The notes beneath the pieces were generated by a model that ran no database searches, was not told the origin of the DNA, and worked only from the letters and a program-made list of their open reading frames with translations. This document shows positions 7,078 through 28,996 of a stretch of 28,996 nt of DNA, in pieces. Location of the stretch: positions 1 through 28,996 of IMG/VR virus record IMGVR_UViG_3300036670_000228; one strand, written 5' to 3'. The position numbers and the translations under genes are program-made. The number at the start of each line of letters is the position of its first letter. Position 1 is the first letter of the stretch. The stretch comes from a virus.

Positions 7078-8775
7078 TTATTTGGCAAAATAGGTCTTCT
7101 GTACCCTAGCAGCACTCACTCCTGAGAACCCAGTGGCACGTAGTTGTACCACATTGCCAGCTAGTGTGGCCCCATAGGATGCCACTAGTGATACCCCAGT
7201 ATAGATATTATTAGTAGTGCTGATCACTACCGCTGTGCCATTATGAACTACCCTGATGTCACTGAGCTGCTGTTCACCAGTGCTACTGGTAACTGATACT
7301 GAGTACTTGGCACTACTATAAATATCAGTATCAAATGCATCCAATATGGTTCCCTGATTATCAGTATTCACTGGAATACTGGGACTGGTCACTACTGATA
7401 AATTTTCGTCGATAGCAACCCCAGCTGCCACAAATCTCACATCAATTATATCTGAAGTTAATGGCGCAGTGGGAGTTCCACTGCTATAAAAAGTGATCTG
7501 ATTGGCGCTCACCAGATAGCTGACCCCAGGACGCTGCAAAACCCCGTTGATGCTCACCAGCACTCCATCACTGGTTGCGTTGTGGTCCAGTGTGTAGGTA
7601 TAACTGGTGCCATCTGGTGTTATGGTTTGATTGGTAATCTGGCTGGGTCCCAGTGGCAACCATTGATTTCCTGAATAATACTCAGGACTCAACAGGTCAG
7701 TGTTGTAGCGTATGCTACCCGATGGTGACGCAGTGGGTTGCTGAAAAGTGCTACCAGTGGGAATCACCAGCGCACCAGTGCTGGATATTACTGTAAGTGG
7801 CCCGTTAGGTACCAGTAGTAGATTTCCATTGGTACCCAGTATGTTATTGGTTCTCATGTTACCAGTGAAGCTGGTTGCACTGGCTGCACCACTTATGCTT
7901 GCATTGCCAGCAGTTACTGATCCCAGAACCAGGAGTTGAGTGAGTGCGCCCACGCTGGTGATACTGGGTTGGGCGGCAGTTTGCAGTGTTCCAGAGATAG
8001 TGCTAAACTGTGCAGAGCCACCAGCGACATTGCCCAGCAGATTACCAGTGATATTTGCTGAGAAATTTGCAGTAACGCCTGAGATATTACCACTGGATGA
8101 AATTCCAGCACTGCTGATGGTACCAGTGATCATGTTACCGGCTACAATGTATCCTGCACCATTGGCCTGCAGATTAAGGTTTCCGTTGATGTTAGTGATA
8201 CCAACAGTATTACCACTGACGTTCACGTTTCCAAAATCGCTGGAGCCAAATTGTCCTATGCCCTTGAATCCAGTATATCGTGCACCCACTATAAAAATAC
8301 TACGACTGGTGAATGAATATGGTGGTAGATTGGAATCAGGGAAGGTTAGCACACCGGACTGGTAGTCAAAGAACCAGGAGTCAGCTGCACCGCTGCCATT
8401 GGGAAACAACTGAGTACCAGACACCTGTGGTGAGCCAGACCCAGTGAGATCCAGGTACACACGCACCTGATATGTGGACCCAAATTCAGGAGTTACCCAA
8501 TCAGTTAATCCTGTGTTCCAGGTGCGATTGGTGGCTGATGTGGAATCCATGATGGCTGGTGCACCAGTGTAAACGCCAACCACGCCAGAACTGGCCACCG
8601 GAATCACTGATGGTATACTCTGACTCTGTTGCCAGATCAGGTCGCCTCTGATTAGCAGTGGACTGGCCACGGATTCATTGCTGGGGCTCTTGGCAGACTG
8701 TACATCAGTCTTGGTGATGCCGTAGCCAATTTTTTTAAACAAGTAGTCTATTTTTTGTGTATCTGAGATAGCCAT
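7078..8775 (-). CDS. Fibre/appendage structural protein (565 aa)
   Basis: The start is taken at the ATG at 8775 (MAISDTQKIDYLFKKIGYG). A longer reading from a TTG at 8796 would overlap the upstream gene. The ATG lies one base past the stop of the 686-aa gene. From memory, the N-terminal ~190 residues (KIDYLFKKIGYG, LLIRGDLIWQQS, DSWFFDYQSGVLTF, GARYTGFKGIG) match a conserved structural protein of cyanophages and other aquatic T4-like phages. A Gly/Ser/Ala repeat region follows (ITGNLLGNVAGG). The C-terminus has the module trio shared with the 2035-aa protein: SIRYNTDLLSPEYYSGNQW, LVSINGVLQRPGVSYLVS, and a terminal ~100-residue domain ending RVQKTYFAK. It is probably a virion appendage that uses the same tip or oligomerisation domain as its giant neighbour. 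Confidence 0.8.
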   Translation of the reverse strand: MAISDTQKIDYLFKKIGYGITKTDVQSAKSPSNESVASPLLIRGDLIWQQSQSIPSVIPVASSGVVGVYTGAPAIMDSTSATNRTWNTGLTDWVTPEFGSTYQVRVYLDLTGSGSPQVSGTQLFPNGSGAADSWFFDYQSGVLTFPDSNLPPYSFTSRSIFIVGARYTGFKGIGQFGSSDFGNVNVSGNTVGITNINGNLNLQANGAGYIVAGNMITGTISSAGISSSGNISGVTANFSANITGNLLGNVAGGSAQFSTISGTLQTAAQPSITSVGALTQLLVLGSVTAGNASISGAASATSFTGNMRTNNILGTNGNLLLVPNGPLTVISSTGALVIPTGSTFQQPTASPSGSIRYNTDLLSPEYYSGNQWLPLGPSQITNQTITPDGTSYTYTLDHNATSDGVLVSINGVLQRPGVSYLVSANQITFYSSGTPTAPLTSDIIDVRFVAAGVAIDENLSVVTSPSIPVNTDNQGTILDAFDTDIYSSAKYSVSVTSSTGEQQLSDIRVVHNGTAVVISTTNNIYTGVSLVASYGATLAGNVVQLRATGFSGVSAARVQKTYFAK

Positions 8776-17655: not shown

Positions 17656-20526
17656 TTAAGCTGCTGGTGCTGGAACATTTGCACCAGCACCCGCGGCAGG
17701 GGCACCTGGTGCTTCAGCCGTCCCACCAGCCATGCCAGCATCACCTGCCAGGTCAGGTGAGACATTTTCCAGGTCACTGGACAGCCCACCAGGAGTGATG
17801 CCCACGCTGCGTAGATCAGTCTGCCCTGGTGGTGCAGCTTCCACATCCCCCTGCTCCTCTGCCCATTGCTGCTGGTTTTCATTCATTTCCTGCTCACTTA
17901 GCCCCAGATATCGTTTCATCAACCAGCGCTTGGAAAAATATGGATATGCTTCCAGCTGTGTAAATGTGGCAATCCTGGCTGAATCCACATCAGCCTGAGC
18001 ATAATGTGCAAAGTTTTGTGGCTCCATGAGTACCACATCAAATAGTGCACTGTCAATATTCACACCACGCCAGCGCATGAACATCTTGAACTCCTGGTCC
18101 ATTTTGTCCACAATCATTTTCTGCAAACGTATGCAGTATTCGTTGAATCTTTTTTCCTGTATCAGTGCAGTTCCAACTTTTCCATCATTAAATGTGGCGC
18201 TACCCTCATCTGCGCCAGTGGGCAAATAGCTGCTGGGTATGCGTAGTCCACGAAATAGTTTGTTGGTAAAGAATCTCAGATCAGTTATTTCCCCAAGATT
18301 TGAATTTTGAGTGAATACGCCAGATGACAGCGCAAAATTATGGAAATCGTGATGCTCTTCATGTTGGTCAATGGTTAGTGTACCCACTTGAATTTTAGTG
18401 TCCAGATACTCAATACATACAATTTTATGATTATATTCCAGGACATCTTTCTTGAAATGACCCCAGCTGCTATAACCATTACGCTTGATGCATGCAACTA
18501 ACATTGATGAATTAAAATGTAATCCCTTCCATTTTTTGCTGTTAGTATCCACATTAATAGATTGCAGATGTCCTAGAAACTTAGGATCCATGGACATCTC
18601 GCTGGCTATTAAATCAATAGTTACATGTTTAGCAGCCATGACATGGCTTTGAATCATGTCCATGGCAATTTTATCATATTTAATTTCTTGATTACCAAAA
18701 TGCTTATTATAATAATCATGTAACCCTTCCGTTAATTTGGAAATATGTTGAGTCTTTTCCGTCTCAGCCATGCTTGCCCACATGGCTAATGCCCTCTTGC
18801 TATACTCCTTAATACATTTTTCGTACTCACTGGGGGCGTGCAGCTGCATTTCAGATAACCGATGTGATGCTGCTAACGTACCCAGCTGTTGCACTTCCGC
18901 ACTAAAACCATTGAATGCATGATATTCTTGATGATTTTCCCAATCCATTAACACTAAATTTTCCGGAGAATTATTAAATCTATCATGATCCACATGATGT
19001 ACTACATCATGGTCATGATGTTCACTATCAATACCAAACGTAAATTTATCCAGTGGCAGGTTATCCCTGACTACTCTATGAACAAATTCCCATTTCTTGG
19101 AATGATTTTGGTATACTTGAGTGTACTGACGCTTTGCGAATTTTGAAATTACTTCATTTTTTATATTATGTGGAATTAAACTGTCTGATACTACCAACTC
19201 ATCAGCCCGCAGCGTACCTCTACCAATAATTGGAAATTTATGATCTGGGGTAACAATGATACTTTCGCCATTGTCCAGCGTCAGTTTCATTACTCTGGCA
19301 GATTGTTGCGTTACCCCTGCCCAGCTAACCTTGCCGGGTACCACTTGACCAGATTTTGGATCACAACTGTATACCCAATTTTGTTTTCCATTCTGGTATT
19401 CATCGGACATTTCCGTCAGTGTTAATGTTCTACCATCCAATAATGGTACCCTGGTATCCATGGCCAAGCAGCCACCAGGCAATGCTTCCACGCTACTACC
19501 CCGGCCATCAGCAGTAACCGGAAAAAAGAAATCCTCATTTGTGCTTAGTGGATTATATGTAGCATCCATCATGTTTGCCCCGCCACCACTTTGGGTAGGA
19601 ATTCGACGCTGAGCGATTTCATTTTTAATACGATCCACGAATGCCATGGCCATGTGCGGGGGCATGTTACCCACATCAATCTTAAAAATTCTTCTCTCAG
19701 GTGCACGTTGCACACGATATATGATAATACTATCTTCCAGCAGTTCCTTCTGTTTAAATACCTTGAATACATGTTCCAGTACACTGGTACCAAAAGGCCA
19801 GTATGCATCCAGCCCCTCAGTCAAGCTCATATGCACTATGTGCTCGGCATTAATCACTGCTTCGTTGTGCTGATGAGAGAATCTGGAACCGCCGCTCTGT
19901 GCAGTATTGGGGGAAATATAGCCGCCATTGCCACCACCAACCTGGGGAGAATTACTGTAGCTATCGCTGGTACTCACTGCGGTTACAGTAAGATTTTGAA
20001 AATTAGGGTTGATGTCCTTGATCATGTACTGTTCAGGCTTTTTACCGTCAGCCTCATTCACAATTACCTTGGTCACGTTACCCATTTCAGTCCACATCAT
20101 TTTAAATGTCTGCGGATCACGTATAAACACCTGATCGCCGTACTTTAGTGTGTTGCGTACTATTTTAAACATACGCTTGTTGAACTCATTCAGTGCCACC
20201 CACTGCTGCAACTGCTCTTTGATAATGTTTACTTCATGATCAGTGGGCTTGTCCTTGTACCTGATCTCAAATGGTGTATGATTTTCACTGTTATCCTGGG
20301 AGCAAAACTCAGCCAAGATATCCAGTGCAGCATTTACTTCACTATCCTGATCCATGGCTTCATATTGGTTATAACGCTCTATGCGGTTAGGGTGACCCAC
20401 GTATACCTCAGGAAGCGTGCTCTGATAATTACGATAGCCTGGCTCAGGCATTCGTGTGCTACCGTTACCCAGTGGGCTAAGGTTGCTGGAGACGTTTGCC
20501 GTCTTGAAAAACTTTTTCCATGCCAT
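17656..20526 (-). CDS. 20: Portal vertex protein (T4 gp20 family) interrupted by an intein (956 aa precursor)
   Basis: The gp20 portal forms the dodecameric DNA entry ring and initiates prohead assembly. Family segments are clear: YQSTLPEVYVGHPNRIERYN, LKYGDQVFIRDP, EHIVHMSLTEGLD, LLEDSIIIYRVQRAPERRIF, and DFFFPVTADGRGSSVEALPG. After the intein come SNLGEITDLRFFTNKLFRGL and RIPSSYLP. Removing residues 353-741 leaves 567 aa and restores the continuous motif LPGG-SNLGE, a conserved part of T4-type portals. T4 gp20 is 524 aa. The C-terminus is a Pro/Ala/Gly-rich tail. The ATG at 20526 is preceded by a GCTAAATA octamer. Because gp20 is essential, splicing of this intein is presumably obligatory for virion production. 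Confidence 0.95.
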   Translation of the reverse strand: MAWKKFFKTANVSSNLSPLGNGSTRMPEPGYRNYQSTLPEVYVGHPNRIERYNQYEAMDQDSEVNAALDILAEFCSQDNSENHTPFEIRYKDKPTDHEVNIIKEQLQQWVALNEFNKRMFKIVRNTLKYGDQVFIRDPQTFKMMWTEMGNVTKVIVNEADGKKPEQYMIKDINPNFQNLTVTAVSTSDSYSNSPQVGGGNGGYISPNTAQSGGSRFSHQHNEAVINAEHIVHMSLTEGLDAYWPFGTSVLEHVFKVFKQKELLEDSIIIYRVQRAPERRIFKIDVGNMPPHMAMAFVDRIKNEIAQRRIPTQSGGGANMMDATYNPLSTNEDFFFPVTADGRGSSVEALPGGCLAMDTRVPLLDGRTLTLTEMSDEYQNGKQNWVYSCDPKSGQVVPGKVSWAGVTQQSARVMKLTLDNGESIIVTPDHKFPIIGRGTLRADELVVSDSLIPHNIKNEVISKFAKRQYTQVYQNHSKKWEFVHRVVRDNLPLDKFTFGIDSEHHDHDVVHHVDHDRFNNSPENLVLMDWENHQEYHAFNGFSAEVQQLGTLAASHRLSEMQLHAPSEYEKCIKEYSKRALAMWASMAETEKTQHISKLTEGLHDYYNKHFGNQEIKYDKIAMDMIQSHVMAAKHVTIDLIASEMSMDPKFLGHLQSINVDTNSKKWKGLHFNSSMLVACIKRNGYSSWGHFKKDVLEYNHKIVCIEYLDTKIQVGTLTIDQHEEHHDFHNFALSSGVFTQNSNLGEITDLRFFTNKLFRGLRIPSSYLPTGADEGSATFNDGKVGTALIQEKRFNEYCIRLQKMIVDKMDQEFKMFMRWRGVNIDSALFDVVLMEPQNFAHYAQADVDSARIATFTQLEAYPYFSKRWLMKRYLGLSEQEMNENQQQWAEEQGDVEAAPPGQTDLRSVGITPGGLSSDLENVSPDLAGDAGMAGGTAEAPGAPAAGAGANVPAPAA
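18304..19470 (-). mobile_element. Full intein with HNH homing endonuclease in gp20 (389 aa)
   Basis: The intein spans precursor residues 353-741. Block A starts with Cys353 (CLAMDTRVPLLDG). Block B is GESIIVTPDHKFPI with Thr426 and His429. Block F is HHDFHNFALSSGVF. Block G ends TQN741, followed by Ser742 as the +1 nucleophile. The penultimate residue is Gln instead of the usual His. Between the splicing blocks lies an HNH-type nuclease core at 510-536 (HHVDHDRFNNSPENL then ENHQEYH). A helical region follows that could bind DNA (around 630-690). No LAGLIDADG motif is seen. Excision joins LPGG to SNLGE. The insertion sits in one of the most conserved portal motifs, as homing elements usually do. 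Confidence 0.93.
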
Positions 20527-25189: not shown

Positions 25190-25657
25190 TCAGGCTATTG
25201 GGGGTATTGACGTGGTGTCGGATTTTAATAGGAATTTTTTTATAATATGTGAGCCGTGAACTCTCACTGAAATTTGACCATTGTAGTAGTCCATGGATTC
25301 CAGTACCTTGCGTTCAAATTGTTCACGAGCTTCTATATATGAAGTCTCAGCCTTGGAGGAACAATAGTGTAGTATTTCCCTGGAGAAATTTTCAGCACCC
25401 ATGCTAATAACATCTGCACTGAGCTCCAGGCTGCTGCCATAGTATTCAACCCAATCTGACTCAACAGATCCTCTGATTTTTTTTCTTTTCTTGGTACCGT
25501 TTTTCAGTTTAACTACCTTGTAGGTGGTTTTGGCAAACTTAGCCAGCTTCTTACCCACGTATCGACGTCCACTGACAGTATTGGTTATTAGATACACAAA
25601 ACCCACGCAGGTGTCTGGTAGCTGCTCAACAATATTTCCCTGATAGGTCCAGATCAT
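25190..25657 (-). CDS. GIY-YIG-like endonuclease (155 aa)
   Basis: The segment GFVYLITNTVSGRRYVGKK carries the VY...YVG pair of the GIY-YIG nuclease core (residues 21-35). A basic stretch follows (KVVKLKNGTKKRKKIRGSVE), then SDWVEYYGSSLEL, then SREILHYCSSKAETSYIEAR with a candidate metal-binding Glu in YIEAREQFE. Small proteins of this layout are common in T4-like phages and are often compared with the T4 Seg homing endonucleases. It may be a free-standing homing enzyme or a phage DNA-processing nuclease. It lies between the gene-poor stretch and the radical SAM gene, 39 bp after the latter. The start at 25657 has no strong ribosome site. Confidence 0.75.
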   Translation of the reverse strand: MIWTYQGNIVEQLPDTCVGFVYLITNTVSGRRYVGKKLAKFAKTTYKVVKLKNGTKKRKKIRGSVESDWVEYYGSSLELSADVISMGAENFSREILHYCSSKAETSYIEAREQFERKVLESMDYYNGQISVRVHGSHIIKKFLLKSDTTSIPPIA

Positions 25658-25696: not shown

Positions 25697-26707
25697 TCAC
25701 CAGGAACTCATATAATTTTCTGTCATAACTGACGATTTACATTTAGTTTGACACTCAGTCCATCGAAAAGTGCGTAATTCGGTGTCCCAAAATTGATCAT
25801 TAACTACGTCAGTTAGATCTCTGTGATTTAAGTCAAACCGCTTGGCCAATTCGCGCCATTCACTATTGTGACCGTAACGATTAGCCACCCAGCAACAAGG
25901 GTATAATCTACCCTGTGCATCGATATATAATCCCTTGTTACCAATACTACATAAAGGTACAATCGGCTGGGATAGATCTGCATTTTTAATTAATTGGATA
26001 TTAATTGGATGAATACTATCCATTTTTCCAAGAGCGGTCAATGGTGTAATAACTCGTTCAAATCTATATGAGTGAGATACGTATTTTGATGATGGCTCCA
26101 GTGGATCCTGCTCGCCATAGTGGGGATAAATTTTACCAAACTTGGTGGATAATGTTAGTTGAAAAACATCCATGCCCAGCTTCACTGCATGAGATTTCAT
26201 ACTATCCAGATGATCCTCGTTAAATTTAAATGCTATTGCTGCCCATACTAGTTTGCAGGTACTGCTGGAACGCAAAGATTTGATCCCCGTGATGATAGAA
26301 TTAAAATTGCTGTTCACACGATATATATCGTTACTATGTTGATCGTATCCGTCAATACTAAAATGCACAGTATCCAGCGATGTTAGGGTCCTGCCCAGGT
26401 CAATCCACCATTGAGTTTTTTTATAGCTACCGTTGGTCACTATTAAAAATTCCACTGGCTTTACACTTTTAACGTATTGTATCACTGGAATTAAGTCGTG
26501 TGCATATATGGGATCACCATCGTCTCCACAAAAAGTAATTTTCTCCACATGTTCTAGTATAAACTCAGGTGTAAAATTTTTCTTAAAGAACTTCAATGTC
26601 AGTTCAGTATTAACTAGACTATCAGGAACTTCCTGTCGGGCACATCTGGTGCATTTTAGTGTGCATTTACTGCTAATTTCAATATGAAAATGCCATGTGG
26701 CCAGCAT
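25697..26707 (-). CDS. Radical SAM protein with SPASM-like C-terminal cysteines (336 aa)
   Basis: The 4Fe-4S ligands C15, C19 and C22 lie in the CxxxCxxC motif SSKCTLKCTRCAR close to the N-terminus. Further radical-SAM barrel marks are ITFCGDDGDPIY at ~57-68 (GGEP-like position), FLIVTNGS at ~87-93, and VHFSIDG at ~114-120. The C-terminus has LYIDAQGRLYPCCWV with C271/C272, plus C253, C319 and C323. This fits a SPASM or twitch-type extension for auxiliary Fe-S clusters, which are typical of peptide or protein modification enzymes. The substrate is unknown. No small precursor-peptide gene is obvious nearby. AGGGA lies ten bases before the ATG at 26707. It sits between gp46 and a GIY-YIG gene and has no late octamer. 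Confidence 0.85.
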   Translation of the reverse strand: MLATWHFHIEISSKCTLKCTRCARQEVPDSLVNTELTLKFFKKNFTPEFILEHVEKITFCGDDGDPIYAHDLIPVIQYVKSVKPVEFLIVTNGSYKKTQWWIDLGRTLTSLDTVHFSIDGYDQHSNDIYRVNSNFNSIITGIKSLRSSSTCKLVWAAIAFKFNEDHLDSMKSHAVKLGMDVFQLTLSTKFGKIYPHYGEQDPLEPSSKYVSHSYRFERVITPLTALGKMDSIHPINIQLIKNADLSQPIVPLCSIGNKGLYIDAQGRLYPCCWVANRYGHNSEWRELAKRFDLNHRDLTDVVNDQFWDTELRTFRWTECQTKCKSSVMTENYMSSW

Positions 26708-26790: not shown

Positions 26791-28782
26791 TCAACCTACT
26801 TCACTTATTTCTGTATCAGTACTATATTCTGTGAATCCATTGGATTTTACCACATGCAGTGTATTATTTACGCGACCTACCAGTTCGTCCTTGTGTGATA
26901 CCAACCAGATACTCTTTTTCTGCTCACGACTGGTTTTCTTCAATATGGCCAGTGCACTCTCAATACCACTGGCGTCCAGTCCGTTATCGATCAGCTCATC
27001 AATGAATAACAAGTTTATTTTCTGATACAAGGATTCCCAAACATCACGGAATGCCCAGCTAAGTGACAGTATCAGACGATTTCGTTCCCCACGTGAAAGA
27101 TTGTCAAAGTCTAGCTCTCTGCCAAGTTCCTCAATGGTTACTGACAGATCGTTATTGAACTTTACAGTATGTGGTAGACCAATTTGTCCCAAATAATACC
27201 CTAGTCTGATATTTAAGTAGGATAGATTCTGATCAATAATTTGTTTACGGATGAAACTATCCTTGTTACTCAGCAGCTTGTATAGCATTTCCTGATGATC
27301 ACGTAACAGACCCAGCGCTTCAATTTCATCATAGGTGACAGATTCAATTCCCACGTTGCACATTTCTTGAATTTGCTCAGAGTATGGATCCTGTTCTGCT
27401 TGCTTATTCAGTAATTGCTGCTGTATGTGTGCAATACTGCTGCGATGCTCCACTGCATCATTTTCATTATCATAGTAAACCTTGGGTTGGGTACCAGCAG
27501 CACCCAACTCTCCGAGTTTAGTGGTATGCTCCAATAACTGTGTGTTGGTTGCTAGATATTGTAATGCAGCTTCCTGTAATGCAGCTTCCTTGCTGGCCAG
27601 TACAGTGGAGTGAGCATCATCATGTAAGTCGCTACCGCATGCATAACACTTGTGGTCTTTGAGTAGATTTACTTCCGATTTTAATTTATCAATGAGTTTA
27701 AGTTCGCGCACCTGGGACAAATCACACTGTTTGATATATTTGTTAACACTGGCCAGCTCTCTGGTTAGCTCAGTCCAAGCAGTCAGTGCTCGGTGTGCGA
27801 TCAGTTCAGCCGCGATGTCAATATGGCCCAACTCAGTCTGAGACTCTTGCAGATCATTTATATCCTGTGTATGTTTGGCGACCCACACACGCTCTCTACG
27901 ACGTAGATTCTCTATTTGTTCTTCCACTCGTTTGTTGGCATCAGTTACTGCCTTGATGCGGAATTCTTCTTGTGTGATGGCGTCCTTGGAGATTTTGATC
28001 TGATCCTTGAGCTTGTCAGCTTTTTCACTGAGCAGTGTGATGCCCAGCAACTGCTCGCTGATCATGCGCTGATCATTTGCACGCATGCTAAGAAACGGCT
28101 CAGTGTATGTATTCAGCGCTAGAATGTGTTTGAACATGTCATGACTCATGCTGTATATACGTTCCAGCTCGGCCTGTGTTTCTCGACTGTCACCCTGCGC
28201 ATCATCCACTTTTTTCTCGTCTCCGCCTACCCATAGTTTCATAACAGTAGGTTTACGACCACGTTCAATTTTATACTCTACTCCGTCCTTGGCAAACTCC
28301 ACTGTGACCAGCATGTTCTTGGCATTGGTGCGATTGATTAAATTATCCTTGCGGATGTTACTGATGGCATTGCCGAACATGGCATAGCTCAGTGCATTGA
28401 TGATGGTGGTATTATGTGAGAGTATTCCGTTTGAGTAGAATCTATGATTCGGGGAATCCACTGTCAAGTCAAACATTGGCTCAAATACACATTGGTTTAC
28501 CACTGTAGCTACCAATTGTGGTCCAGATTCAGTCATGATTTTGGATCGCATGGGGATGAGATCTTTGACAAACACTTGGTTTAGATCGTGATCAAACACA
28601 ATATGAGTGTCGGCAGCATCCAATTGCAGCCCGCCTGTGGTAGACAAACTCCATTTTTCATAATCAATAGTTTTGTGAATTTTGTTTAAATTAACCCACC
28701 CAGTGTCGGTATCAATCTCAAAATTTGAAATATCAAATGATTTAACAAATTTTCTAGTTATTGAGTCAGAAAGTTCAAGCAT
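26791..28782 (-). CDS. 46: C-terminal intein fragment fused to gp46 C-extein (recombination/SbcC-like ATPase, 663 aa)
   Basis: Residues 125-663 are the SMC/Rad50-like ATPase gp46 without its first ~35 residues. They show TTIINALSYAMFG right after the P-loop position, a coiled coil, the zinc hook CYAC at 379-382, the second coiled coil, the ABC signature NLSRGERNRL at 561-570, Walker B INLLFIDE at 589-596 and the His switch LVSHKDE near 630. With gp47 it forms the end-resection nuclease for recombination-dependent replication. The Walker A loop GxNGxGK is absent. In its place residues 1-124 are intein sequence ending SHN. The protein should be functional only after trans-splicing to an N-half encoded beyond the window. 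The ATG at 28782 lies inside the end of the nuclease gene upstream, with only a weak ribosome site. Confidence 0.9.
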   Translation of the reverse strand: MLELSDSITRKFVKSFDISNFEIDTDTGWVNLNKIHKTIDYEKWSLSTTGGLQLDAADTHIVFDHDLNQVFVKDLIPMRSKIMTESGPQLVATVVNQCVFEPMFDLTVDSPNHRFYSNGILSHNTTIINALSYAMFGNAISNIRKDNLINRTNAKNMLVTVEFAKDGVEYKIERGRKPTVMKLWVGGDEKKVDDAQGDSRETQAELERIYSMSHDMFKHILALNTYTEPFLSMRANDQRMISEQLLGITLLSEKADKLKDQIKISKDAITQEEFRIKAVTDANKRVEEQIENLRRRERVWVAKHTQDINDLQESQTELGHIDIAAELIAHRALTAWTELTRELASVNKYIKQCDLSQVRELKLIDKLKSEVNLLKDHKCYACGSDLHDDAHSTVLASKEAALQEAALQYLATNTQLLEHTTKLGELGAAGTQPKVYYDNENDAVEHRSSIAHIQQQLLNKQAEQDPYSEQIQEMCNVGIESVTYDEIEALGLLRDHQEMLYKLLSNKDSFIRKQIIDQNLSYLNIRLGYYLGQIGLPHTVKFNNDLSVTIEELGRELDFDNLSRGERNRLILSLSWAFRDVWESLYQKINLLFIDELIDNGLDASGIESALAILKKTSREQKKSIWLVSHKDELVGRVNNTLHVVKSNGFTEYSTDTEISEVG
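28411..28782 (-). other. C-intein of a probable atypically split intein in gp46 (124 aa)
   Basis: The fragment contains FEIDTDTGWVNLNKIHKTID, a block-B-like LQLDAADTHIVFD with Thr59-His60, VFVKDLIP, block F MFDLTVDSPNHRFYSN and block G GILSHN124, followed by Thr125 as the +1 residue. Block A with the first Cys is missing. The split therefore lies close to the N-terminus, giving a long C-intein. This is the arrangement of atypically split inteins such as AceL-TerL, not that of gp41-1 or DnaE, whose C-inteins are about 35-40 residues. The join would recreate GK-TTIINAL, the Walker A loop. Confidence 0.85.
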
Positions 28783-28996
28783 TTAGTAATAGTTCCAGGT
28801 AAGTCATGTTTTGTTTCAGATTCCCATACAACCAGGACCTGGTATCCCTGGTCCTCTAGTAGTTTTTGTCGAGCTGCGTCATCAGCCCAAATTGTTGCAG
28901 CGATTTTAGATTTAATTTTACTGTGGCTACTGTATTTTTTCGGATTAGCGTGCCAGTAATCACCGTAATATTCAATTATCTTTCGTCCGTGTAAAC
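28758..28996 (-). CDS. Partial Vsr-like homing endonuclease, N-terminus beyond window
   Basis: The frame is open from the right edge to a TAA at 28758-28760 (78 residues visible). HGRKIIEYYGDYWHANPKKY carries the GDYWHxNP motif typical of Vsr-like (EDxHD-type) phage homing nucleases. ATIWADDAARQKLLEDQGYQ then VLVVWESE matches the second half of that fold. It was not in the supplied list of complete ORFs because it lacks its start. It overlaps the C-intein gene by 25 bp in another frame. Vsr-like endonuclease genes are known to sit between the halves of fractured genes with split inteins, and that is how I read it. It could also be the 3' part of a longer ORF that includes the N-intein. Confidence 0.8.
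   Translation of the reverse strand, partial: LHGRKIIEYYGDYWHANPKKYSSHSKIKSKIAATIWADDAARQKLLEDQGYQVLVVWESETKHDLPGTITKCLNFLTQ

What the first reader, a model, noticed from the sequence alone, without database searches (positions are those of the whole stretch)
28758..28996. Vsr-like homing endonuclease gene abuts and overlaps the C-intein gene
The GDYWHxNP nuclease tail ends 25 bp inside the C-intein gene, in a different frame. Homing endonuclease genes between split-intein halves are the hallmark of fractured genes in phage metagenomes. The overlap suggests translational coupling, so the nuclease, the C-intein and gp46 output would be linked. It could preserve an intermediate step between an endonuclease-bearing intein and a split one.
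Basis: partly seen in the sequence, partly recalled or inferred. Interest (0 to 1): 0.72.

Follow-up and report, generated by a model that had tools for sequence, protein, structure and literature searches.

The report
Nuclease gene overlapping a split intein
The end of this phage contig holds half of a mobile "split intein" element in a DNA-recombination gene (gp46), with a DNA-cutting homing-enzyme gene overlapping it by 25 bases; it is a new example of a known arrangement, but relatives show that it moves between phages and can also exist with the enzyme gene hidden out of frame inside an unbroken intein gene.

Summary
Confirmed. On the minus strand, a 78-codon nuclease ORF open at the contig edge (28994-28758) ends 25 nt inside the gene for a 124-aa C-intein fused to the gp46 C-half (28782-26791). 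The contig stops there, so the N-half is not visible. Complete relatives supply it: gp47, gp46 N-half plus ~37-aa N-intein, ~367-aa nuclease with its own ATG, C-intein plus gp46 C-half. Sequence and predicted fold place the nuclease with EDxHD/Vsr homing endonucleases and the C-intein with atypically split inteins (VidaL, Cat). The insertion lies exactly between Walker-A Lys and Thr; intein-free gp46 genes are common. The 25-nt overlap recurs in 50 of 59 non-redundant Vsr-type cassettes, in gp46 and TerL. Two gp46 cassettes differ at 3 of 1536 bp while their gp46 flanks are 68-73% identical: a homing footprint.

Verdict: new member of the known "fractured gene" kind, probably mobile. Coupling is plausible, unproven. 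The window is an ordinary split form (a stop immediately precedes the C-intein ATG), not an intermediate. A candidate intermediate exists in relatives: in TerL genes of two C-intein clades the nuclease gene lies out of frame inside one unbroken intein ORF (0 stops, about 15-18 expected).

The parts
28758..28994 (-). 3' end of the EDxHD/Vsr-like homing endonuclease gene (78 codons + stop; 5' end beyond the contig). Catalytic-region residues KIIE, GDYWH, IWADD, VWESE present; the conserved Asp (D285 of L108) falls two residues outside the contig.
28758..28782 (-). 25-nt overlap of the nuclease 3' end (..K|CLNFLTQ*) and the C-intein 5' end (MLELSDSI..) in different frames
28411..28782 (-). C-intein, 124 aa, ends ..GILSHN; begins downstream of the short N-intein (atypical split). 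Predicted Hint fold, pLDDT 91.5
26791..28410 (-). gp46 (SbcC-like recombination ATPase) C-extein, begins TTIINAL, i.e. with Thr+1 directly after the Walker-A Lys of the missing N-half
28408..28413 (-). splice junction codons Asn124 | Thr+1 (insertion point between Walker-A GK and TT)

Best explanation
The contig end is the 3' two-thirds of a mobile 'fractured' intein cassette inserted in the Walker-A (P-loop) codons of phage gp46. Upstream, beyond the contig, there should be gp47 and then the gp46 N-half ending in a ~37-aa N-intein. The nuclease gene starts inside the N-intein 3' end and ends 25 nt inside the C-intein gene. The two gp46 halves are made separately. The short N-intein docks on the 124-aa C-intein, and trans-splicing (Cys1 / Asn124 / Thr+1) restores an intact P-loop. 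The Vsr-like nuclease cuts intein-free gp46 genes at or near the P-loop, and repair copies the whole cassette. C-intein translation starts at the ATG inside the nuclease gene, either coupled to termination of nuclease translation or from an internal ribosome site. Shown here: anatomy, homology, predicted folds, exact insertion site, intein-free alleles, recent transfer of whole cassettes between relatives. Inferred: splicing, DNA cleavage, coupling, and the N-half of this particular phage.
For: Complete homologous cassettes in gp46 (L003, L004, L007 and many more) and TerL. PDB profile hits of the nuclease: Vsr 1odg/1vsr/1cw0 at E about 0.002, then I-Bth0305I 3r3p at E 0.38. Fold of full-length relative L108 (pLDDT 90): 1cw0 Z 11.3, 3r3p Z 11.2 over residues ~249-366. 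C-intein: VidaL 6vgv by profile (E 1e-9) and by fold (TM 0.77, 1.0 A over 102 columns). Insertion exactly between K and T; 81 intein-free against 44 intein-bearing gp46 relatives held. The window's gp46 C-extein is closest to intein-free gp46 (75-77% identity) and nests among them, apart from the main intein-bearing gp46 clade. Homing footprint: L075/L078 gp46 cassettes differ at 3/1536 bp, exteins 68%/73% identical with breaks at the intein borders. Overlap 25 nt in 50/59 Vsr-type non-redundant relatives; 46/47 split ones start with ATG and 23/47 have an SD 4-mer against 9% background.
Against: The N-half, N-intein and most of the nuclease of this phage are not in the record. No splicing or cleavage was measured. 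The window's C-intein start lacks a clear SD 4-mer. The direct homing footprints are in relatives, not in the window's own cassette.
Confidence: 0.9

Rival explanations
1. The overlap is not a coupling device. It is a historical junction frozen because both proteins need the shared bases: once the C-intein ATG sat in the nuclease 3' end, neither could move. C-intein translation starts independently from an internal ribosome site.
For: SD-like 4-mers upstream of the C-intein ATG are enriched 5-fold (23/47 against 9%). Nuclease remnants keep the same 25-nt register after the nuclease has decayed (L107, L054, L065, L121). Cassettes with GIY-YIG-type or other nucleases have other overlap lengths (8, 17, 26, 29 nt) and the same kind of C-intein.
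Against: Start codons lie upstream of the stop of the preceding ORF in nearly all cassettes, and in nuclease-free L106 and L124/L125 the N-intein and C-intein ORFs overlap by 8 nt, which suggests selection for adjacency. A third or more of the starts, the window's included, lack an SD 4-mer.
Confidence: 0.45
2. The nuclease is an independent free-standing homing endonuclease that happens to lie beside the C-half, as in Caulobacter phage Cr30, where a relative lies directly upstream of an intein-free TerL.
For: Cr30 carries such a gene with intact, intein-free TerL.
Against: In 50 of 59 Vsr-type relatives the nuclease overlaps the C-intein by exactly 25 nt, and its start lies inside the N-intein gene in nearly all loci where both ends are held; whole cassettes of N-intein, nuclease and C-intein move as one block.
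Confidence: 0.05
3. The three reading frames are joined by programmed frameshifting into one N-intein/nuclease/C-intein polyprotein, so gp46 is spliced in cis.
For: N-intein and C-intein are in the same frame and the nuclease is one frame off in all 33 gp46/TerL cassettes of the 25-nt type that were measured.
Against: In the window a stop codon directly precedes the C-intein ATG and the ATG is conserved in 46/47 split cassettes. Two precise shifts would be needed; no slippery motif was looked for.
Confidence: 0.04
4. The gp46 half is a dying gene: the insertion broke gp46 and the remnants are not rejoined.
For: The N-half is not visible in this record.
Against: The C-extein is open over 539 codons, 52% identical to L004 and 47% to PA5oct-group gp46. 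The splicing residues His123/Asn124 are conserved, with Thr+1 following. The C-intein folds confidently.
Confidence: 0.03

Closest known systems
'Fractured genes' with Vsr-like homing endonucleases (Dassa et al. 2009, doi 10.1093/nar/gkp095; content from memory, paper not held; cited as the EDxHD/Vsr family reference in PMC12350094)
   Same: Conserved phage gene broken by a split intein with a free-standing EDxHD/Vsr-type nuclease gene between the halves.
   Different: Host gene here is gp46 (SbcC-like); I found no held paper that reports an intein there, but could not read Dassa's table. The exact 25-nt nuclease/C-intein overlap and the shared Walker-A position in gp46 and TerL were not found described in held papers.
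AceL-TerL, GOS-TerL, Cat (S2-type atypically split inteins; PMC11766414, PMC13014065)
   Same: Short N-intein (25-37 aa), long C-intein (104-115 aa), phage/metagenome origin, TerL host. Relatives of the window's cassette have N-inteins of about 34-51 aa and C-inteins of ~124 aa, many in TerL.
   Different: Cat scores lower than VidaL by profile and fold; Thr or Ser at +1 instead of Cys.
VidaL atypical split intein (PDB 6vgv)
   Same: Best match of the C-intein by sequence profile and by fold.
   Different: VidaL is split earlier, after beta-2 (S1 position, PMC13014065); in the window's family the split follows the first helix region (GEFYEQ..).
I-Bth0305I (PDB 3r3p) and E. coli Vsr (1cw0)
   Same: Fold of the C-terminal nuclease domain, Z 11.2 and 11.3.
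   Different: About 250 residues of other helical N-terminal sequence; about 20% identity; gene lies within a split intein, not an intron (I-Bth0305I, annotated as mobile intron protein) or a mismatch-repair operon (Vsr).
Contiguous TerL mini-inteins of Ackermannviridae (Vibrio VP-1, Kuja; Shigella Ag3)
   Same: Same intein family at the same Walker-A position (38-42% identity).
   Different: One ORF, no nuclease.
[quoted passage not shown]
   Same: Precedent for a homing endonuclease gene hidden out of frame inside an open host reading frame, as in TerL relatives L105, L225, L259.
   Different: The authors found no intein or intron there; in L105/L225/L259 the surrounding frame is a recognisable intein. 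The window itself is not nested.

Membership tests
Fractured gene (split intein with endonuclease gene between the halves) | C-terminal half of a conserved gene preceded by a C-intein on its own ORF | tested here: met
   124-aa C-intein then gp46 C-extein; stop immediately before its ATG
Fractured gene (split intein with endonuclease gene between the halves) | Endonuclease gene adjacent to the C-intein on the inner side | tested here: met
   Vsr-like tail, 25-nt overlap
Fractured gene (split intein with endonuclease gene between the halves) | N-terminal half with an N-intein upstream of the endonuclease, in this phage | not testable with these tools
   contig ends inside the nuclease; no continuation found. 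Present in the full-length gp46 relatives
EDxHD/Vsr homing endonucleases | Vsr-like nuclease fold and conserved active-site region | tested here: met
   Sequence of the window's tail covers KIIE..GDYWH..VWES; fold tested on relative L108; the first conserved Asp lies outside the contig
EDxHD/Vsr homing endonucleases | Site-specific cleavage of the intein-free allele | not testable with these tools
   needs purified protein; indirect support from homing footprints in relatives
Atypically split inteins (short N-intein) | C-intein contains block B as well as F and G; N-intein under about 40 aa | tested here: met
   C-intein includes ADTHIVF block and SHN end; N-inteins of relatives mostly 34-42 aa, up to 57 in some TerL loci; none visible for the window itself
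Atypically split inteins (short N-intein) | Trans-splicing activity | not testable with these tools
   catalytic residues present; not assayed
Mobile (homing) element | Precise insertion with intein-free alleles in close relatives | tested here: met
   GARNGTGK|TTIINAL in 81 intein-free relatives; window gp46 nests among intein-free gp46
Mobile (homing) element | Near-identical element in diverged host genes | tested here: met
   in relatives: L075/L078 (gp46) 3/1536 differences, flanks 68/73%; L259/L261 (TerL) 0/1266, flanks 60/71%. Not tested for the window's own allele
Contiguous intein with nested out-of-frame nuclease (variant in TerL relatives) | C-intein frame open upstream through the nuclease gene | tested here: not met
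   window: TAA stop immediately before the C-intein ATG

The most novel reading that the evidence does not exclude
Split inteins of this family derive from contiguous inteins that carry the Vsr-like homing endonuclease gene out of frame. The nested state is seen in TerL relatives L105/L225/L092 and L258/L259/L261: one unbroken N-extein-intein-C-extein frame (complete in L105, L225, L258, L259 and L261; L092 partial), a 279-aa nuclease in another frame inside it, and the same 25-nt nuclease/C-intein overlap. Once stop codons arise in the intein frame, the start codon inside the nuclease 3' end lets the C-half be made separately, which gives the split arrangement seen in the window. This would be a direct route from endonuclease-bearing intein to split intein, and the first intein with an out-of-frame homing endonuclease that I could find. 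The nested state itself is well supported; the direction of change is not.
Probability: 0.35. Interest if true: 0.8.

Novelty: new member of a known kind. Interest (0 to 1): 0.58.

Why it matters
It adds gp46, the ATPase of a recombination nuclease, to the genes carrying fractured inteins, and shows a large, actively moving family that uses one intein/nuclease cassette at the Walker-A codons of unrelated ATPases (gp46, TerL; a DnaB-type helicase with the intein alone). The family spans full split cassettes, cassettes with decayed or lost nuclease, re-fused mini-inteins, and unbroken inteins with the nuclease hidden out of frame. How split inteins arise is an open question that this series makes testable. 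The very short N-inteins and natural variety are also useful for protein ligation tools.

Tried and rejected
Looked for the window's missing upstream sequence: exact 31-mer at the contig edge in viral contigs, no hit; no N-half or gp47 elsewhere in the window. Scan of bacterial/archaeal genomes with the C-intein profile found no relative. The C-intein tree does not resolve the window's place (nearest rows are TerL inteins, no starred clade), so I do not claim that its cassette came from TerL. The three frames being in register (N- and C-intein in the same frame) was considered as evidence for a contiguous ancestor; it is weak, because the two overlaps lock the frames once formed and chance alone gives one in three. 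Foldseek with the full-length nuclease model gave no E below 0.001; the VIA alignment on the C-terminal domain did the work. Literature: no held paper links inteins to gp46; Dassa 2009 is not held, so what it lists could not be checked. L211 shares only the nuclease remnant with L105/L109 at 100% identity; a chimeric assembly cannot be excluded, so I do not lean on it.

Full report
Observation. The window is a complete IMG/VR virus record of 28,996 bp. On its minus strand the last gene at the right-hand edge is an ORF without a start (28994->28758, 78 codons) with the tail ...CLNFLTQ*, and the next gene starts at ATG 28782. The shared bases are 28758-28782, 25 nt, read in two frames. In the frame of the second gene a TAA stands directly before the ATG, so the two genes are separate and the second has its own start.

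The second gene. Its 663 aa are a 124-aa C-intein ending in ILSHN followed by TTIINALSY..., the part of gp46 that follows the Walker-A lysine. The C-extein hits the SbcC-like PHROG 77 at E 4e-79, is 52% identical to L004 and about 47% to gp46 of the Pseudomonas PA5oct group. Profile and fold both put the C-intein with VidaL, then other inteins, gp41-1 and the engineered atypical Cat among them. Because block B is in this piece and the relatives' N-inteins are mostly 34-42 aa, it is an atypically split intein.

The first gene. Its profile matches only Vsr (E about 0.002) and, weakly, I-Bth0305I (E 0.38) in the PDB; a full-length relative, L108, gives a confident model (pLDDT 90) whose C-terminal domain fits Vsr 1cw0 at Z 11.3 and I-Bth0305I 3r3p at Z 11.2. 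Invariant residues of the family (K, E, G, W, H, E) are present in the window's tail; the nearly invariant Asp just before it falls outside the contig.

Relatives show the missing part. Loci L003, L004, L007 and many others contain gp47, a gp46 N-half ending in ...NGTGK followed by an N-intein (C.CINT.VKVR...TTVGELYNAAMEQQ), a nuclease of about 367 aa whose ATG lies 29-41 nt (typical gp46 case) inside the 3' end of the N-intein gene, and the C-intein/gp46 C-half. The same cassette sits at the same Walker-A position in TerL; related nucleases lie between intein halves at the Walker A of UvsW and in PolB, DNA ligase and UvsX/RecA loci.

The overlap is a family trait. In 82 non-redundant C-inteins of the family (at most 93% identical), 59 have a Vsr-like nuclease upstream and 50 of these have exactly 25 nt of overlap (43 of 49 in the first set). 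In that register the nuclease has a cysteine whose TGC/TGT codon supplies the TG of the C-intein ATG, invariant in the 38-row alignment. Cassettes that carry GIY-YIG-type or unassigned nucleases instead have 8, 17, 26 or 29 nt. Of 47 split 25-nt cassettes 46 start with ATG and 23 have an SD 4-mer, against 9% for random positions in the same nuclease genes. So the start is real, but coupling and internal initiation cannot be told apart from sequence.

Mobility. Gp46 relatives without an intein are common (81 held) and have GK directly followed by TT. In a gp46 tree the window's C-extein lies among intein-free genes (nearest 75-77% identical), apart from the main intein-bearing clade, and presence/absence needs at least 5 changes (2 forced by starred branches). 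Direct footprints: gp46 cassettes L075 and L078 differ at 3 of 1536 bp while the exteins on both sides are 68% and 73% identical, with the break at the intein borders; TerL cassettes L259 and L261 are identical over 1266 bp with flanks 60% and 71%.

Decay and re-fusion. Some relatives keep only nuclease fragments (L054/L055 145 aa, L065 112 aa, L107, L121). L106 and L124/L125 have none: the N-intein and C-intein ORFs overlap by 8 nt. L109, L211 and L256 have lost most of the nuclease and have become one open intein frame. Ackermannviridae isolates such as Vibrio phages VP-1 and Kuja carry the contiguous intein in TerL.

The nested form. In TerL loci L105 (with identical copies in three metagenomes: L105, L104, L209), L225, and L258/L259/L261/L264, the frame from N-extein through N-intein to C-intein and C-extein is unbroken, and the whole 279-aa nuclease gene lies inside it in another frame, still with the 25-nt overlap. 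L092 and L254 show the same but run off the contig. Stops in the intein frame over the nuclease gene: 0, against 15-64 in split homologues. Shuffling synonymous codons of the nuclease gives 15-18 stops on average and never an open frame (0 of 20,000 for L105, L104, L225 and L092; 0 of 3,000 for L258/L259/L261; in an earlier run 1 of 20,000 for the partial L092). L105 and L225 nucleases are 62% identical with a normal codon-position pattern. On the C-intein tree nested forms fall in two clades; which state is older is not resolved. [quoted passage not shown] The window is not of this form.

Assessment. The finding is real and, by family, a new member of the fractured-gene kind. Shown: anatomy, homology, folds, insertion site, recent cassette transfer in relatives, open nested frames. 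Inferred: splicing, cleavage, coupling, and the unseen N-half of this phage.

Noticed in passing
L105:2813-5662, L225:1783-, L258:1810-, L259:412-, L261:1810- (TerL relatives): Complete Vsr-like nuclease gene (279 aa) nested out of frame inside one unbroken TerL-intein reading frame; 0 stops where 15-18 are expected.
   Followed up: yes
L075/L078 and L259/L261: Near-identical cassettes (3/1536 and 0/1266 differences) in host genes only 60-73% identical: homing footprints.
   Followed up: yes
L106:3838-, L124:4001-, L125:4001-: Split intein without any nuclease; N-intein and C-intein ORFs overlap by 8 nt.
   Followed up: partly
L109, L211, L256: Nuclease-deleted forms in which the two intein halves are fused in one open frame with short nuclease remnants as linker.
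   Followed up: partly
L046, L090, L085, L089, L110, L112, L118: Same C-intein family at the same site with other upstream nucleases; T5orf172 or GIY-YIG domains were matched in L046, L085 (weak) and L118, and overlaps differ from 25 nt.
   Followed up: partly
L025:703-2685: C-intein gene with an extra N-terminal stretch (EITIGSFYNNQF) that resembles the end of the N-intein, as if the split point had shifted; nuclease does not overlap it.
   Followed up: no
L015:856-3420: In a gp41/DnaB-type helicase the Vsr-like nuclease is fused in frame behind the N-intein (854-aa ORF), with the C-intein on a separate overlapping ORF.
   Followed up: no
L214 (Caulobacter phage Cr30) 3027-5745: A relative of the nuclease lies free-standing directly upstream of an intein-free TerL whose P-loop reads RQSAKSTT instead of RQxGKTT.
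   Followed up: no
window 17656-20526 (-): T4-like portal protein gp20 with a contiguous intein that carries an HNH-like motif: a second, different intein in the same contig.
   Followed up: no
window 25190-25657 (-): SegE-like GIY-YIG endonuclease, a second free-standing homing-type nuclease near gp46.
   Followed up: no
window 25697-26707 (-): Radical SAM/SPASM protein gene directly downstream of gp46.
   Followed up: no
L218 (Salicola phage SCTP-2) 3501-4394: TerL C-half with a C-intein of this family; the neighbouring upstream genes are on the other strand, so its N-half must lie elsewhere.
   Followed up: no
L003 about 7090-7157: gp46 C-extein of this relative shows a frame break, possibly a sequencing error.
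   Followed up: no
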